A stretch of 34,729 nucleotides of DNA from a virus. The notes under the pieces are model-generated. The model ran no database searches. It was not told the origin of the DNA and saw only the letters and a list, made by a program, of their open reading frames with translations. The stretch is taken from IMG/VR virus record IMGVR_UViG_3300046170_000015, positions 1-34,729 of that record; one strand, 5' to 3'. This document shows positions 11,894-34,729 of the stretch, piece after piece; within the stretch, counting starts at the first letter, position 1; each line of letters starts with the position of its first letter. Both the position numbers and the translations under genes were made by a program.

Positions 11894-14800
11894 ATGGATG
11901 CATTAGATAAACTTTTTGCAGAAGACACCGATGGCAGTAGCGTTACACAACCTACTGCCGTTGATGCTTTAGACGCAGACACACAAACACAACCAGCTAG
12001 TGTTGACGCACTGGACTCAATATTCAGTGGCACTTCTACATCTACCGTTGGTCCAATTAAAACAACAGTAGATGCTGTAGCAGTAGATGATGTGCCAGAA
12101 GTAAGTTCAAATAATGATGACGCAATGATACGTGAATATCTATCTAGTAATGATCCATACTATACTGAGTCTTATCTACGTAGTTTAAACACGGAAAAGC
12201 TGTCAGAGGTTTTGTACGAAGAAGATGCCGACTTAGTTAATCGTCACTACAAACTACCGACAGACCCATTAACACAAGAAGATATAGCTGAGATATCAGA
12301 TGGTGCTGAGTTAGTTGCTGTCGATGAGACACTACGTATGAAAGCCCGTAGCGGTTTGACTGATGCATTGCTTGCTTCTGGTATTACTAAAGACAGAAAA
12401 ACTGCCCTGTCAATGGCAGATGACTTTGTAGGCAATCCAGATGCTAACAGTATCCTTGAAAGTCTTGGGGGTGCAGACATAACACCTGTAGGTGCCGTGT
12501 TTGCATTAGAAGAAGCCGTGCGTGAAATGCAGAAACTTAGCGAGAATGATGCAGATGCTGCCTCTTATATACTGCCGGGCCTTGATGCTGCTCTGTCAGT
12601 TCTTGAAGGTGCGTTGATAACTAAACCATTAGCCAAAGGTATTAAAGGCGTTATCACAGGCACACGTAATGTTAAGACTATAGATGATATAGTAGAACAG
12701 TCGGAAAAGGCCAAGGTAATTGCGGAACAAGAAACACGGGATAAGTATTTTAATGCCCGTATGAATATTAGTGTGGCACGTGGGGCTACAGCAGAAGATA
12801 TTGCAGAAAAAACTAAAGCTGCAGAAGAAGTTGTAGCTGCTAACAGAGACATCAAGAATGAATTTATCCAAGAGTTTCAAGACACGACTGGTAAAACAAT
12901 ATCTGTTGCAGATGAAAGCGGTAACTTAAACCTAGACCCTGACTTAGCACGTCAAGCTGGCGAAGATACACTAGAAGAAATAACACAAGCTAATAAAGGA
13001 ACAGTACGTGAGTTCCTTCGTGGTGAAGTGAGTCAGACGGACGCTGCTCTTTTAGCTACTGGAAAGGACACACTAACTAAACCAGTACTACGAGCAGACA
13101 AGCTAGATGGTATAGTTGCCGCAGCAGCAGATTTAAAGAAACAATATCCAGATGCATTTGCCCCAAGAACTTGGGAGTTTGGACCCAAGAAGGGAAAGAA
13201 GTATACTGTAATTGACAACCTGTTTGAGTTGACAGTGAACAAAGAACTGGTTGCTGGAGATGAACTGCTAGACACACTCAGTAAATACAATGTGTCCTTT
13301 GAAGATTACGTTCTTGCAGTTGTAAACTCTGGTTCAGAGGCTGGTAAAATACTCAATAAACTATCGCAGATAAAACGAGCAAGACCTACTAACGAACTCA
13401 TTGATATGCAGGAAGCGGCTACTAAAGAGGCACAGAACGCTATCAGTAAAACTTGGATGCGTATTGAAAATATTCGCCGTGGTGGATTGGTGTCTCAGCT
13501 TGCTACTGCTGCACGTAACTTAACATCAGGTGGTATTCGTGCGCCGCTGGAAGGTCTAGGCAATGTAATGGATACTGCCTTGTACAACCTATCTGAAAAA
13601 GGATTAGCGTCTGGTGCAGCTTCTGTGTTAAGTAAAGCTAATTGGTCTGACAGTTTCCGACACATGAAGTATATGTTTAGTCCAGAGTATGCCATGCATA
13701 CAAAAGACTATGTTGACTTTATTATGGAGCAACCTGCGCTTGGTAAACAAGCTAGTATGTTGTTTAACAATATCAATGAGATTCAACGTGCTACAGGCAG
13801 AGGTGAAGGCGGTACGTTGGATGCATCACTAACTGTTTTAGAAGATGCTGTAGACACATTAAATACACCTAACCGTTGGCAAGAATACCTTATTAGACGA
13901 GGTGCTTTCTTAGGTGAATTAGAACGACTGACTAAACGTGAATGGGGTATTGATTTAATTGATACCATTAATCAAGGAAAGATGCGGGACTTAATGAATG
14001 ATGCATCTAGTGTGCGTCCTAAAGATGGTAGGTCTTTCCTTAATCTAGTAGAAGATGCTACTAATAGAGCAATGGACATTACCTACGCCAAGCAACCAGA
14101 CATTGGTGTGTTTCGTTCTACTTCACAGTTTATTGTTCGTAACGGTCTTACTGTTGTAATGCCTTTCCCACGCTTTATGTTTAATAGCATGGAACTGATG
14201 GGACAGTATGCTGCAGGTGCATCTATACCACTTACACGTAAGCTTGCAAGCCTTGTGACAATGGGGCGTGTAGGTAAAGGTAAACTCACTGCTAAAGATA
14301 GGCAGCGTATTTCTAGGAATGTTGTAGGTGCAGGTGTGGCTGGGCCTATTGTACCTGTAGGAGTAGGCGCACTACTTGATGATGATGCCGCTAATCAAGA
14401 ACAGATTACTGATGAACTGTTAGGAATGGCAGCATTTGGTGCTTTCTATCAATTGCGTACAATGGATGGGGCTGCTGCTGATTATAAGATTATAAAAGTA
14501 GGTGATGCAGATTTAGATACTACAACACAGTATCCAGCCAGACAGTTCCTGTATATTGCAGAGGCTACAAGGCGTTTGCAGGAAGGTACATTCAATGACT
14601 TCTTTGACCCAAAAGAATTTGCTGAGACGTTTATTGGTACTAATATCAGACAAGGTGTAGGTAAAGGTATACTGCAGGAAGTTGCTGACTTGGCATCAGA
14701 TACTGATTTAGTTGGCGGCGAGGTTGCGGCTAGACGTGCCGGTACATTGTTGGGTAATTATCTATCTACATGGGCTGTGCCTTTTGGTCAGATCATTGAG

Positions 14801-15529
14801 GCACAAAGGGGTGCAGGTGTACGTGGTACAGAGATGAAAGACTTGGCAGATGATCCAACATTAGATGCTCAAACCACCTTTTTAAATGCACTTAGCAAGC
14901 CAATGAAACGCTTTACTACAACTGCAGAAGAAGAAGCCGCTGCACCTTCTCGTGAATACTTATTCCAAGAGGGCAAGAGTAGAATGTTTCCTATGGCTCG
15001 TGTCGCATTAGGTCTTAGCTTTAACACCGCTGATAGTGAAGAAGGTGAGTATGCAAAAAGGCTTGGCTTAACTGAATGGCAGCTAGGAAGTACATCACGT
15101 GTGCCAAGCATACGGAACTTTGAGAACAGGTTACTCAGAGATGCAATCCCAACAATAATTAACTTTGCACAAAGACAAGAGGGTAAATATCGTAATCAAT
15201 ATCAATTAGCAAAACCTGCTATACGTAAGAAATATACAGAGCAAGCATTTGTTAATGCTAAGATTAGACCTATAATAACTGAACAAGTTAAGAAACTAAA
15301 GCGACAGATTTCTACAGGTAAGAAACTGAAGGCAGATGCACCTGCTTACGCTAAAGGTATGCTGGAATATCGTAGATTACCGCCCGATATTCGTAAGGTA
15401 GCTGCAGTTAAGTTTGTGGAGAAGTATGGTAGGGAACCCGATGGAACAGCAACAAAAATAGAAGGTGCTTTCGATGTAAACAGGTTAGCTACAATAGGAA
15501 AAGCCTATAGAAAAGCATTAAGTAAATAG
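11894..15529 (+). CDS. Very large virion protein, putative DNA-ejection protein
   Basis: At 1211 residues this is the largest product in the window and the last gene of the plus-strand block. The first 50 residues repeat a short motif three times (MDALDKLF, VDALDADT, VDALDSIF) in an acidic linker, which could be a docking signal. Residues about 250-350 are long charged helices. Later parts include QLATAARNLTSGGIR, hydrophobic stretches around GVAGPIVPVGVGALL, and helical blocks to the end. I see no lysozyme or transglycosylase signature. T7-like phages end their virion block with a very large internal protein that enters the host with DNA, and I infer that role from position and size. The terminator at 15533 follows directly. 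Confidence 0.7.
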   Translation: MDALDKLFAEDTDGSSVTQPTAVDALDADTQTQPASVDALDSIFSGTSTSTVGPIKTTVDAVAVDDVPEVSSNNDDAMIREYLSSNDPYYTESYLRSLNTEKLSEVLYEEDADLVNRHYKLPTDPLTQEDIAEISDGAELVAVDETLRMKARSGLTDALLASGITKDRKTALSMADDFVGNPDANSILESLGGADITPVGAVFALEEAVREMQKLSENDADAASYILPGLDAALSVLEGALITKPLAKGIKGVITGTRNVKTIDDIVEQSEKAKVIAEQETRDKYFNARMNISVARGATAEDIAEKTKAAEEVVAANRDIKNEFIQEFQDTTGKTISVADESGNLNLDPDLARQAGEDTLEEITQANKGTVREFLRGEVSQTDAALLATGKDTLTKPVLRADKLDGIVAAAADLKKQYPDAFAPRTWEFGPKKGKKYTVIDNLFELTVNKELVAGDELLDTLSKYNVSFEDYVLAVVNSGSEAGKILNKLSQIKRARPTNELIDMQEAATKEAQNAISKTWMRIENIRRGGLVSQLATAARNLTSGGIRAPLEGLGNVMDTALYNLSEKGLASGAASVLSKANWSDSFRHMKYMFSPEYAMHTKDYVDFIMEQPALGKQASMLFNNINEIQRATGRGEGGTLDASLTVLEDAVDTLNTPNRWQEYLIRRGAFLGELERLTKREWGIDLIDTINQGKMRDLMNDASSVRPKDGRSFLNLVEDATNRAMDITYAKQPDIGVFRSTSQFIVRNGLTVVMPFPRFMFNSMELMGQYAAGASIPLTRKLASLVTMGRVGKGKLTAKDRQRISRNVVGAGVAGPIVPVGVGALLDDDAANQEQITDELLGMAAFGAFYQLRTMDGAAADYKIIKVGDADLDTTTQYPARQFLYIAEATRRLQEGTFNDFFDPKEFAETFIGTNIRQGVGKGILQEVADLASDTDLVGGEVAARRAGTLLGNYLSTWAVPFGQIIEAQRGAGVRGTEMKDLADDPTLDAQTTFLNALSKPMKRFTTTAEEEAAAPSREYLFQEGKSRMFPMARVALGLSFNTADSEEGEYAKRLGLTEWQLGSTSRVPSIRNFENRLLRDAIPTIINFAQRQEGKYRNQYQLAKPAIRKKYTEQAFVNAKIRPIITEQVKKLKRQISTGKKLKADAPAYAKGMLEYRRLPPDIRKVAAVKFVEKYGREPDGTATKIEGAFDVNRLATIGKAYRKALSK

Positions 15530-31701: not shown

Positions 31702-31971
31702 TTAGTTGGTTAGTGTGTTAGTAGTCGAGGTTAGTCCAACATTGGACTTGATATGTCTTATGACATATTTGGCACGATTGATAAACCACCGTGCTTGTTT
31801 TTGGTCATATGACATAACATGTTGTGCATCAGATAGGATAGACATAGCCAACATGCAAGGCATATCTTCGTGCAGCATATCTTCCATATCTAGCTGTGTG
31901 CAACCGTATATATCCATGTACCGCTTGTCTGTTTCTGTCTGTGCTACTTCATTCCAAGTTAAGTTACCCAT
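31702..31971 (-). CDS. Early protein whose coding sequence carries an operator-like palindrome (89 residues)
   Basis: GGAG is 7 bases before the ATG at 31971. The protein is mostly helical (MGNLTWNEVAQTETDKRYMD onward; AMSILSDAQHVMSYDQKQAR). The C-terminal stretch KSNVGLTSTTNTLTN contains KSNVGL, encoded by the 19-bp palindromic element at 31733-31748; the gene at 33616 encodes the same six residues with its own copy. I recognise no family. It overlaps the small basic gene before it by 8 bases. Confidence 0.65.
   Translation of the reverse strand: MGNLTWNEVAQTETDKRYMDIYGCTQLDMEDMLHEDMPCMLAMSILSDAQHVMSYDQKQARWFINRAKYVIRHIKSNVGLTSTTNTLTN
31733..31748. promoter_or_regulatory. Operator-like palindrome, copy 1
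   Basis: AGTCCAA-CA-TTGGACT, perfect 7-bp arms with a 2-bp centre. The wider 19-bp match TAGTCCAACATTGGACTTG is identical to copies 2 and 4. This copy lies inside the coding sequence of the gene at 31702. Confidence 0.7.
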
Positions 31972-32095: not shown

Positions 32096-32204
32096 TGTGC
32101 TTATCTTTCTTTCTGTTGTATTTGGTTTTGTCTGGCACTGCTTGTGTCCTGCGGCGTGACTGTGCCACTGCCTTCGCCACAGGGTTGATAGGTTTAATTC
32201 GCAT
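32034..32204 (-). CDS. Small basic protein of unknown function (56 residues)
   Basis: The ATG at 32204 follows GGAGAAAGG and overlaps the preceding stop by 11 bases. The N-terminal MRIKPINPVAKAVAQSRRRT is familiar from small basic proteins of marine phages; the rest is Lys- and Arg-rich (KTKYNRKKDKHNANQSR) before an acidic tail. It probably binds nucleic acid. An upstream frame to 32243 exists but lacks a ribosome site. It shares about 60 bases with the small basic gene at 31964. Confidence 0.6.
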   Translation of the reverse strand: MRIKPINPVAKAVAQSRRRTQAVPDKTKYNRKKDKHNANQSRENEVTESETPQSKA

Positions 32205-32362
32205 TGCCTTTCTCCATGTTGTGGATGAACTGAAGATAATCAATTATCTCCTGCACATCGTAATGTTCTACGTTATGGTCATGCTTCATATGCATTGCCT
32301 TCTGATACACATCCATTGCAAAATCATACATGGATAAGTGCTTTATAAATCTTAACGTCCAT
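32194..32362 (-). CDS. Early protein after control module A, start unclear (leader peptide or frameshift)
   Basis: AAGGAG sits 8 bases before an ATG at 32362 that reads MDVKIYKALIHV and stops at 32324. A second frame, with an ATG at 32331 lacking a ribosome site, continues MYDFAMDVYQKAMHMKHDH to 32194. Dropping one base near 32329 joins both into a 55-residue helical protein. Alternatively the first is a 12-residue leader peptide whose stop overlaps the second start, giving coupled translation. The operator palindrome at 32377 lies directly upstream of the ribosome site. Confidence 0.5.
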
Positions 32363-32376
32363 TTGTAAAACTCCTT

Positions 32377-32392
32377 AGTCCAACATTGGACT
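32377..32392. promoter_or_regulatory. Operator-like palindrome, copy 2 (module A)
   Basis: AGTCCAA-CA-TTGGACT, identical over 19 bp to copies 1 and 4. It sits in the intergenic space just upstream (minus strand) of AAGGAG and the ATG at 32362, and 22 bases from dyad A. A protein bound here would sit near the transcript start of the downstream gene. Confidence 0.75.
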
Positions 32393-32414
32393 TGTCTAGT
32401 ATATCTAAGTAAAT

Positions 32415-32445
32415 ATATTACTTTCACTAAAGTATCAAGTAATAT
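32415..32445. promoter_or_regulatory. Large dyad A with conserved centre
   Basis: ATATTACTT and AAGTAATAT form 9-bp arms around a 13-base centre, TCACTAAAGTATC on the plus strand. The centre is identical in dyad B, while the outer arm bases differ but stay complementary. On the minus strand it contains TTGATA, a possible -35 box, with A/T-rich -10 candidates at imperfect spacing. It could be a protein site, an RNA hairpin or a promoter element. Confidence 0.65.
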
Positions 32446-32469
32446 TTTACATAAGATATACATAAGGGG

Positions 32470-33105
32470 TTAAGCGATACCATGCAGCTTTCGCCATGTA
32501 ACCCATGTAATCGCCTGCAATTCGTATGCTTTCAGCTTACGACCATTGACACGGCAACGACTAGCAGCTTGGCGATAGGCATCTTGAAGATTGCGATACT
32601 CAACAACGCCAATGTTAGTTTTGTTGTCGGTCAAATTGACACGTTCATTGTATGCAATGTTACGAGCATGTCCATCTACTGTACAAGTATCATCACCCAT
32701 GATGTTCTCATAGAAGCATACAATCTTCTTGCCATTAAGAATAGTCTTAATGCTGTCATGGCTTGGTCTAATCTGCCCTAGTATCTGCCATGCCTTGTCT
32801 CGCATAGCATTGTAGGTACAGACAGATACACTATCTACGCTACGACCATTGACAAACGCATCAATCAAATCACGGGCATTTGTCACATTGGTAGACCAAC
32901 GATTGTTAGGTGACAATGCCGCCACAACACCAGCCGCCACATGAATAGAGATACCATAGGATTTGTATTGCTCCGCAAGTTGGCGGCACTCCTCGTATGC
33001 TTCGGCATACCATGCAATGCCATGTGCTACGTCTTCGGGCTTTGCCTTGCGGCGCATAGCAATGATGTTTTTGATAGCAATTTGCATATTAAATTCGGTT
33101 TTCAT
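32470..33105 (-). CDS. Phage protein with HhH-glycosylase-like features (211 residues)
   Basis: GGAG lies 6 bases before the ATG at 33105. Visible motifs are ALSPNNRW (63-70), LNGKKIVCFYENI (123-135), TVDGHA (142-147) and LQAITWVTWRK (196-206). The same order (SP-x2-W, K-x4-FY-x-NI, TVD-x-HA) occurs in a phage protein family, possibly DUF7178. The GK...F...VDxH layout recalls helix-hairpin-helix DNA glycosylases, so base removal is a possible but unproven role; no Fe-S cysteines are seen. The gene is flanked by two copies of the dyad-plus-operator module, about 750 bases apart, and its transcript starts beside module B. Confidence 0.7.
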   Translation of the reverse strand: MKTEFNMQIAIKNIIAMRRKAKPEDVAHGIAWYAEAYEECRQLAEQYKSYGISIHVAAGVVAALSPNNRWSTNVTNARDLIDAFVNGRSVDSVSVCTYNAMRDKAWQILGQIRPSHDSIKTILNGKKIVCFYENIMGDDTCTVDGHARNIAYNERVNLTDNKTNIGVVEYRNLQDAYRQAASRCRVNGRKLKAYELQAITWVTWRKLHGIA

Positions 33106-33124
33106 ATCAAACTCCGTTTGGTTA

Positions 33125-33140
33125 AGTCCAACCTTGGACT
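33125..33140. promoter_or_regulatory. Operator-like palindrome, copy 3 (module B)
   Basis: AGTCCAA-CC-TTGGACT with perfect 7-bp arms. Its flanks match the other copies when read on the minus strand (TAGTCCAAGGTTGGACTTA), so this copy is inverted. It lies between dyad B and the ribosome site of the 211-residue gene. Confidence 0.75.
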
Positions 33141-33157
33141 AGTTAAGTGTTGTATAA

Positions 33158-33196
33158 GTAATATATACTTTCACTAAAGTATCAAGTATATATTAC
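33158..33196. promoter_or_regulatory. Large dyad B with 13-bp arms
   Basis: GTAATATATACTT and AAGTATATATTAC form perfect 13-bp arms around the same 13-base centre as dyad A (TCACTAAAGTATC, 33171-33183). Compared with A, arm positions 6 to 9 from the centre are all swapped, yet each remains paired. The palindrome copy 3 lies 17 bases away, close to the 22-base gap in module A. Confidence 0.7.
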
Positions 33197-33206
33197 GTTA
33201 TTCACA

Positions 33207-33410
33207 CTAAAGCAATTCAGCTAGTATATCCAAGGCAGCTTGCTTGTCAATAGCCTTTCTGTACAAAGCCAAACAAGCAGCAGCTTGTCCTGTATGATAT
33301 ACAGATAACGCTTGGTCATCCCGCTGCTCATCATGTATGACAATTCCAGAGAATTGTGAACGTACTACCTTGTGTCTGCCAAGGTCATGTATTGCCCCAC
33401 GTTTAGCCAT
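33207..33410 (-). CDS. Small early protein (67 residues)
   Basis: The ATG at 33410 is 8 bases from GGAG and overlaps the stop of the membrane protein gene (TAATG). It reads MAKRGAIHDLGRHKVVRSQF, a beta region (SGIVIHDEQRDDQALSVYHT) and a helix (QAAACLALYRKAIDKQAALDI). The small alpha/beta form could bind a host partner. It is the last gene before dyad B. No family recognised. Confidence 0.65.
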   Translation of the reverse strand: MAKRGAIHDLGRHKVVRSQFSGIVIHDEQRDDQALSVYHTGQAAACLALYRKAIDKQAALDILAELL

Positions 33411-33615: not shown

Positions 33616-34209
33616 TTACGCTGCCACCTTATCTTCGTCAAGCATTTCCAACTGCTCTTTAAGAGCAAGCATGAAGTCTTTAATGGCAATGCCATTCATC
33701 TCACACTGTACCAAGGCATCCAAGGCAATGTCGCTTGGTGACTTTGGATCAGCCTTATCAGCTTCGCTGTCTAGTCCAACATTGGACTTGTCATCAGCTT
33801 CGCTGCTTACAGGTGTCTCTGTATTAGCCTTCGGCTTTGGGTCAGCTTTAGGCTTCATGGCAGCTTGTAAAGCTGTAAGGCTAGTGAAGCCCTTTTTGCT
33901 TTTAGCAATGAAGTCACGGCAAGCTGTCTCATTCGCAGCAAACCACATGGCTTCGCTTCTACGGCGTTTGTCGATACCGGCAATGCCACAATCTTTCAGC
34001 CTTGCTGAAGCGATACGATCACCGCCTTCAGCCTTCAGCTTTAGCATCAGCTTTCCAAGCCGTGTATCAAAGCCATCAGCCTTCGTTGACTTGGTGAAAC
34101 GAGCCTTATCACCTTTGGTGATTTGCTTCCACTCTTTAGCCAAGGCAAAGCCTTCAGCTTCAAGAGTGTTGTTTACAACAGCGACCATTTGAGTTGATGA
34201 ATTTTCCAT
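33616..34209 (-). CDS. First early protein of the minus-strand operon (197 residues)
   Basis: AAGGAAG is 5 bases before the ATG at 34209 (MENSSTQMVAVVNNTLEAEG); the frame could begin at 34272 but that would cover the leader hairpin. The first 125 residues are basic, with KEWKQITKGDKARFTKS, IDKRRRSEAMWF and a SKKGFTSLTALQAAM end, and look like a nucleic-acid-binding fold. A Lys/Pro linker and an acidic stretch (ETPVSSEADDKSNVGLDSEA) follow, then a helix (DALVQCEMNGIAIKDFMLAL). It contains palindrome copy 4 in its linker coding sequence, encoding KSNVGL. No named family. As the first gene, it may act soonest after infection. Confidence 0.65.
   Translation of the reverse strand: MENSSTQMVAVVNNTLEAEGFALAKEWKQITKGDKARFTKSTKADGFDTRLGKLMLKLKAEGGDRIASARLKDCGIAGIDKRRRSEAMWFAANETACRDFIAKSKKGFTSLTALQAAMKPKADPKPKANTETPVSSEADDKSNVGLDSEADKADPKSPSDIALDALVQCEMNGIAIKDFMLALKEQLEMLDEDKVAA
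33773..33788. promoter_or_regulatory. Operator-like palindrome, copy 4
   Basis: AGTCCAA-CA-TTGGACT, identical over 19 bp to copies 1 and 2. It lies in the linker-coding part of the gene at 33616, in the same reading frame as copy 1 in its gene. Confidence 0.7.
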
Positions 34210-34243
34210 TTCGGCTTCCTTTATACTATCTTTAGGTTTTATA

Positions 34244-34286
34244 GGGATATACCCTCTTTCACTTACGTTCAAGAGGTTTATATCCC
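34244..34286 (-). promoter_or_regulatory. Long hairpin in the early transcript leader
   Basis: GGGATATA pairs with TATATCCC (8 bp), then CCTCTT with AAGAGG (6 bp) inside, separated by a small internal loop; the end loop is 12 bases. It sits about 35 bases upstream of the first early ATG (34209). It could protect or process the transcript, or act as a regulated leader. Confidence 0.65.
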
Positions 34287-34428
34287 GTAAAACCGTAAGA
34301 AGATAGATATAAGTTTGAGGTTGAAGCCTCGCCTGCGATCTTCTGCGCCTGCCGTTTCGCCTGTGACTGCAGCTATCTCTGATAGCGAAGTACGTGCGCT
34401 AAACTCGTGTGCTGCATGAGGAATGGCT

Positions 34429-34444
34429 AGTCCAAGGTGGGACT
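34429..34444. promoter_or_regulatory. Operator-like palindrome, copy 5 (one mismatch)
   Basis: AGTCCAA-GG-TGGGACT differs from a perfect palindrome at one arm base. Its flanks (TAGTCCAAGGTGGGACTTA) match copy 3 read on the other strand, apart from that base. It lies upstream of the first early gene. Confidence 0.6.
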
Positions 34445-34729
34445 TATGGCAATGACCATCACCCCAAGGGGGTGGCATTATGTGCATCAACACCTTGCAT
34501 TGTGTGTCATTTTTGCAACACTGCCCCTATTTCACGTCAATCATCATGGCAACTGATACCATAACAGTTGACACATTGCCTGAAACCCGCAGAAATGCTA
34601 GAGTTTTCCTCGCATAATGCACGGATGATACACATATATGCCCATAATGCAGGCATATGAGCCTATGCGCTGGCAGATGCGGGCATACACATGGGGGCGG
34701 GCATGAGCCACCGGGGGGTACCGTAGATA

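What the first reader, a model, noticed from the sequence alone, without database searches (positions are those of the whole stretch)
32415..33196. Two large dyads with identical centres and covarying arms
Dyads at 32415-32445 and 33158-33196 share the 13-base centre TCACTAAAGTATC, but arm positions 6-9 differ while every pair is kept. Pair-preserving change is a mark of selected structure, either an RNA hairpin with a recognised loop or a symmetric protein site. The centre itself can form a competing inner hairpin (ATACTTT/AAAGTAT on the minus strand).
Basis: seen in the sequence. Interest (0 to 1): 0.75.

Follow-up and report, generated by a model that had tools for sequence, protein, structure and literature searches.

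The report
Conserved capped hairpins before phage genes
Marine phages of the HMO-2011 type and some unrelated ones carry one to five copies of a hairpin just upstream of gene starts, whose stem changes freely as long as it stays paired while the tip keeps the same design; it is a real, undescribed control element of unknown mechanism.

Summary
Both dyads are real. The syntenic phage HMO-2011 also has three. The exact 21-bp core occurs in 89 viral contigs; 46 bacterial matches to an 18-bp core pattern look like chance and lack paired arms. Across copies the stem sequence changes almost completely yet stays paired (covariation 0.400; shuffles 0.167 +/- 0.017; slid controls at most 0.162). The generic cap is stem-GA-[N0-1]-AY-N2-5-RT-GA-stem: 92 distinct hairpins against 0-11 for control caps. 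Elements sit between co-directional genes; 48 of 56 non-redundant copies have a Shine-Dalgarno and start codon within 110 nt. Orientation follows the gene, even on opposite strands of one genome. The same cap occurs in phages with unrelated structural genes. No Rfam family matches. A symmetric protein site is disfavoured, because arms differ even within one genome. Most likely it is a cis-acting hairpin of early mRNA leaders (stability, processing or translation; about 50%). Against a simple RNA reading, G.U pairs are almost absent (2 against 1,412 Watson-Crick; tRNA control 47 of 995), so a DNA-level hairpin or template-switch repair of the arms remains open.

The parts
34221..34312 (-).
   Evidence: weak hit of covariance model R1 (E 0.64); same cap design and fold, z -6.7; orthologues with compensated arms in HMO-2011, L004, L006, L153
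33143..33211 (-). Element 2: hairpin, cap GATACTTTAGTGA at 33171-33183, upstream of the DUF7178 gene
   Evidence: E 5e-13; z -4.6
32399..32461 (-). Element 3: hairpin, cap GATACTTTAGTGA at 32424-32436, begins 9 nt after the DUF7178 stop codon
   Evidence: E 9e-11; z -4.4
33223..33250 (-). Promoter-like site TTGACA-16-TATACT just upstream of element 2; would start a transcript within about 5 nt of the hairpin base
   Evidence: 11 of 12 consensus matches (scan total 10 found against 7.5 in shuffles, so only suggestive); exact TTGACA is enriched 26-66 nt upstream of caps in the element set, 13 against 1.4 expected
33616..34209 (-). First early gene downstream of element 1 (197 aa, ATG at 34209, SD AAGGAA 37 nt after the cap)
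32470..33105 (-). DUF7178 / phrog_3842 gene downstream of element 2 (211 aa, SD GGAG)
33124..33144 (-). AGTCCAA-N2-TTGGACT palindrome, one of five, just downstream of element 2; operator-like (arms conserved within the genome)
   Evidence: family D1; varies between phages (GTCCGCTGTCGGAC in HMO-2011)
32376..32396 (-). AGTCCAA-N2-TTGGACT palindrome just downstream of element 3
   Evidence: family D1

Best explanation
The dyads are copies of a cis-acting hairpin element that stands upstream of early-gene ribosome-binding sites in HMO-2011-type and some other marine phages. Shown from sequence: a stem of any sequence whose pairing is kept, closed by a fixed cap (GA, a two-pair mini-stem AY/RT that itself varies in a paired way, a 2-5 nt loop, GA), always in the sense orientation of the downstream gene. 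Inferred: on the sense strand the two GA steps form tandem sheared G.A pairs that cap the stem. The hairpin acts in the early mRNA, as a 5'-terminal or intercistronic structure, where it sets the stability, processing or translation of the gene that follows, probably through a host factor, because phage groups sharing the element share no obvious regulator.
For: Covariation well above shuffles and slid controls. Unbiased scan: 92 GA..TGA caps against 0-11 for 12 control caps. Inner pair covaries: AT/CG 40, AT/TA 10 of 56. Position and orientation: between co-directional genes, 5-30 nt after a stop in most cases; 48 of 56 have SD and start within 110 nt, SD 16-75 nt after the cap; on both strands of one genome each copy follows its own gene (L452). 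The GA..GA cap exists only on the sense strand. Exact TTGACA enriched upstream (13 against 1.4 expected), so some copies may sit at mRNA 5' ends. Absent from 289 alphaproteobacterial genomes bar one weak hit.
Against: G.U pairs nearly absent and not commoner than A.C (2 against 8, with 1,412 Watson-Crick pairs), unlike real RNA stems (47 G.U of 995 in tRNAs). If the TTGACA sites are promoters, several predicted starts fall inside the left arm or the cap, so the full hairpin would not be transcribed from them. No transcript data were available. No binding partner identified.
Confidence: 0.5

Rival explanations
1. DNA-level hairpin: the inverted repeat extrudes or folds as single-stranded DNA, and the hairpin with its sheared-G.A cap is a promoter or regulatory site, working like the phage N4 early promoters.
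For: No tolerance of G.U; Y-GA-R context on both sides of the cap; stem identity free as long as paired, and a sheared G:A in the loop, as described for N4 (PMC4496689); short distance to SD suits a promoter.
Against: No single-subunit RNA polymerase found (the PF00940 search had no positive control that rang, so weak); N4 stems are 5-7 bp with a conserved heptamer, these are 13-40 bp; the structured cap is on the non-template strand, in N4 the template strand is used.
Confidence: 0.17
2. Host RNase III processing or mRNA-stabilising site: an intercistronic double-stranded RNA of about 20-25 bp with an internal loop, cut or shielded by host enzymes, with the cap only adding stability.
For: Many HMO-type copies have an upper stem of about 12-13 bp, a small internal loop and a lower stem; multiple copies in early operons; unrelated phages share it, as expected for a host enzyme.
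Against: Does not explain the strict GA..TGA cap design or the lack of G.U; cleavage cannot be tested here. It is a special case of the best explanation.
Confidence: 0.15
3. Symmetric protein-binding site (operator) in duplex DNA.
For: Dyads near gene starts; a separate operator-like palindrome AGTCCAA-N2-TTGGACT lies 15-20 bp downstream.
Against: The arms of copies in one genome differ (the three window copies, L016 three copies, five copies in L454), whereas one protein would need like arms; the conserved centre is asymmetric and keeps one orientation to the gene.
Confidence: 0.08
4. Arms kept complementary mainly by template-switch (quasipalindrome) mutation rather than by selection on pairing.
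For: Multi-base coupled arm changes between close relatives (window against L004); no G.U intermediates; the process is documented (PMC8794818).
Against: The cap is never seen inverted relative to the gene, although template switching inverts spacers; internal loops persist between relatives; one-sided intermediates exist among close pairs (8 one-sided, 5 two-sided); position before SD is conserved. It may contribute to how pairing is kept, not to why.
Confidence: 0.08

Closest known systems
Extended start-associated sequences (ESAS) of cluster K mycobacteriophages (PMC3203893)
   Same: Multiple inverted repeats just upstream of gene starts in one phage genome, oriented with the gene, function unknown.
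   Different: ESAS arms are conserved in sequence and the spacer varies; here the arms vary and the cap is conserved. No 13-bp SAS.
Phage N4 early promoter hairpins (PMC4496689)
   Same: Hairpin whose non-conserved stem bases are exchangeable if paired; loop stabilised by a sheared G:A; early genes.
   Different: N4 stem 5-7 bp with 3-nt loop on the template strand, read by an injected virion RNA polymerase; here 13-40 bp, 10-14 nt cap on the sense strand, no such polymerase found.
Phage T7 RNase III processing hairpins (general knowledge)
   Same: Intercistronic hairpins of about 20 bp with an internal loop in early operons.
   Different: No conserved apical cap in T7; cleavage not shown here.
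Extra-stable 5'-terminal or intercistronic mRNA hairpins such as T4 CUUCGG hairpins and the ompA leader (general knowledge)
   Same: Fixed cap with freely changing stem, near gene boundaries.
   Different: The cap is a longer GA/GA design, not UUCG or GNRA.

Membership tests
Any Rfam 15 family | Match to a curated covariance model | tested here: not met
   No match covering an element in the window or in five element-bearing loci up to E 10 and 1; the sub-threshold GP20-b hit in L016 (3818-3865) lies outside the elements
N4 early promoter | Phage-encoded virion RNA polymerase | tested here: inconclusive
   No RNA polymerase signature in large proteins; Pfam RNA_pol search empty but its controls did not ring
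N4 early promoter | 5-7 bp stem with conserved GC-rich heptamer centred at -11 | tested here: not met
Mycobacteriophage ESAS | Arms conserved in sequence, variable spacer, next to a 13-bp SAS | tested here: not met
   Arms variable, cap conserved
Repressor operator | Arm sequence shared by copies in one genome | tested here: not met
   Arms differ within the window, L016 and L454
Intrinsic terminator | G+C-rich hairpin followed by a T run | tested here: not met
   Not found at any element
RNase III processing site | Double-stranded RNA of about 20 bp in an intercistronic region | tested here: met
   Folds, positions; presence in a transcript is assumed
RNase III processing site | Cleavage by RNase III | not testable with these tools
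   Needs 5'-end mapping in wild-type and rnc mutant hosts

The most novel reading that the evidence does not exclude
The element is a functional DNA hairpin: a long, freely evolving stem with a tandem G.A cap that extrudes from duplex DNA and directs transcription or regulation of early genes, without a phage RNA polymerase, shared by unrelated marine phages.
Probability: 0.15. Interest if true: 0.85.

Novelty: new variant of a known kind. Interest (0 to 1): 0.62.

Why it matters
HMO-2011-type phages are among the most abundant marine viruses, and the literature found here describes no control elements for their early genes (PMC9038755 has no mention of a promoter). A fixed-cap, free-stem hairpin before gene starts, shared by phages with unrelated structural genes, gives a concrete handle on how they control early expression. 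It occurs in cultured phages (HMO-2011, CRP-1, CRP-345), so it can be tested. The absence of wobble pairs makes it a good case for separating RNA-level selection, DNA-level hairpins and template-switch repair of stems.

Tried and rejected
(1) Sigma-70 promoter with TTGATA in the core as -35 and a -10 in the right arm: rejected as a general reading, because TTGATA is not kept in relatives (TAGAAA, AAGAAT, CTGATA) and no -10 is fixed in the right arm. (2) Immunity-type operator: arms differ within one genome. (3) Competing inner hairpin: broken in relatives. (4) N4-like virion polymerase: the 1,211-aa protein has no Pfam, PHROG or PDB match, alone or as a profile, and its conserved blocks do not resemble a polymerase; no structure prediction was run. 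(5) Host copies: the 46 bacterial matches have unpaired arms, and 289 alphaproteobacterial genomes gave one weak hit (only 21 candidates per genome scored, so weak sites could be missed). (6) A shared phage partner protein: comparison of element-bearing groups showed only small scattered homologues, e.g. a pyrimidine-dimer glycosylase family that one phage without the element also has. (7) The terminator-like control for G.U was too noisy (27 against 15), so tRNAs were used.

Full report
What the window is. The window is a 34,729-bp virus record. It is part of an HMO-2011-type marine phage: blast places the early region on Puniceispirillum phage HMO-2011, and gene families include DNA polymerase A, DnaB-like helicase, integrase, Cas4-like exonuclease, ribonucleotide reductase and thymidylate synthase. 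Early genes are read on the minus strand from the right end of the window.

The observation. The two dyads are as described. The core is identical over 21 bp (expected 0.01 in the window), and arm positions 6-9 differ with pairs kept. The arms extend further, as imperfect repeats of 25-28 nt. A search with the model built from relatives and a cap-based scan add a third copy at 34221-34312, directly before the SD and ATG of the first early gene. HMO-2011 has the same three, at 54070-54154, 1-46 and about 1190-1260.

How widespread. The exact 21-mer is in 89 IMG/VR contigs and in cultured HMO-2011, CRP-1 and CRP-345 (in CRP-345 with a variant cap). It was not found in the parts searched of CRP-2, CRP-603, CRP-13, CRP-207, CRP-5, ICBM2 or phiM6 (first 7 kb of most, 48 kb of phiM6). 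Of 32 records searched whole with the model, several of them fragments, 27 carry 1-4 matches. Carriers include a second group (G022, G024) whose structural genes are unrelated and a divergent RNR-bearing phage, G027, with five copies. In bacteria, 46 matches to the 18-bp core pattern TTGAWACTTTAGTGAAAG have arms that do not pair beyond 5 bp. Only one weak hit came from 289 alphaproteobacterial genomes.

What is conserved. In a 40-copy alignment the covariation score is 0.400 against 0.167 +/- 0.017 in shuffles and at most 0.162 in slid controls; 16 of 17 pairs have double changes. The tool's own warning applies: related sequences can exceed shuffles, so the slid controls and the independent genomes matter more. 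An unbiased scan of hairpins by cap found 92 distinct GA..TGA caps and 0-11 for twelve control caps. Cap variants fit GA-[N0-1]-AY-N2-5-RT-GA, and the inner pair switches between C-G and U-A. The outer stem ranges from AATTAATTATT to GGGATATATCCCC. Even ACTT/AAGT is replaceable by ACTA/TAGT, CCTT/AAGG or ATAA/TTAT.

Where it sits. Most copies lie between co-directional genes, typically 5-30 nt after the upstream stop (the gene caller is simple). In 48 of 56 non-redundant copies an SD and a start codon follow within 110 nt, the SD 16-75 nt after the cap. In G022, copies on opposite strands each face their own gene. In G022 and G024 the SD overlaps the base of one hairpin. Exact TTGACA is enriched 26-66 nt upstream of caps (13 against 1.4 expected, Poisson p 2e-9, not corrected for kinship or for four hits from one genome). 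Element 2 has TTGACA-16-TATACT just upstream. So some copies may lie at transcript 5' ends, but in several cases the predicted start falls inside the hairpin.

RNA or DNA. Sense-strand orientation, the cap that can form only on the sense strand, and the place before the SD favour RNA. Against it, stems contain 1,412 Watson-Crick, 2 G.U and 8 A.C pairs, whereas tRNA stems from two marine bacteria have 47 G.U in 995. The scan required four Watson-Crick closing pairs and scored G.U and A.C alike as mismatches, which lowers both; ARAGORN, which defines the tRNA stems, tolerates G.U. The contrast is therefore suggestive, not proof. Template switching during replication is known to create and repair hairpin stems without G.U intermediates (PMC8794818) and could reconcile an RNA function with this pattern; few close pairs were available to test it.

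Judgement. It is a real, selected, undescribed hairpin element of phage early genes. I commit to an mRNA leader or intercistronic element at about 0.5, with a DNA hairpin the most interesting alternative. It works like a start-associated control hairpin. It is not a member of the ESAS or N4 promoter families, nor of any Rfam family. Sheared G.A pairing in the cap is inferred from sequence, not shown.

Noticed in passing
window 31732-31752, 32376-32396, 33124-33144, 33772-33792, 34428-34448: Five near-identical AGTCCAA-N2-TTGGACT palindromes in the early region; they change between phages (GTCCGCTGTCGGAC in HMO-2011, GTCCGACAGCGGAC in L008) and look like repressor operators or stoperators.
   Followed up: partly
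window 32325-32362, minus strand: The SD-ATG after element 3 (ATG at 32362) opens a frame of only 12 codons that overlaps the ATG of the next small ORF (32194-32331): a leader peptide or a frameshift.
   Followed up: no
relatives lacking the element, e.g. L029, L037, L054, L068, 50-70 nt upstream of the DUF7178 gene: Different palindromes (GGTGCAATG..CATTGCACC, GGGACAACAGT..ACTGTTGTACC and others) occupy the comparable place, some around a -10-like sequence; probable operators of other immunity groups.
   Followed up: partly
L016:3818-3865: Sub-threshold match to Rfam GP20-b RNA (29.9 bits, cut-off 36.2), about 110 nt downstream of an element.
   Followed up: no
right arms of elements, positions 5-26 after the cap: G is almost absent from the right arm while C is used, so the left arm carries the G of each pair.
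   Followed up: no
window 11894-15529 and homologues: A 1,211-aa protein family near the end of the structural genes with no Pfam, PHROG or PDB match; possibly an ejection protein.
   Followed up: partly
GU557055 positions 46-433: HMO-2011 has no annotated gene between an element at 1-46 and gene 01 at 433, where SD-like sequence follows the element; a gene start may have been missed.
   Followed up: no
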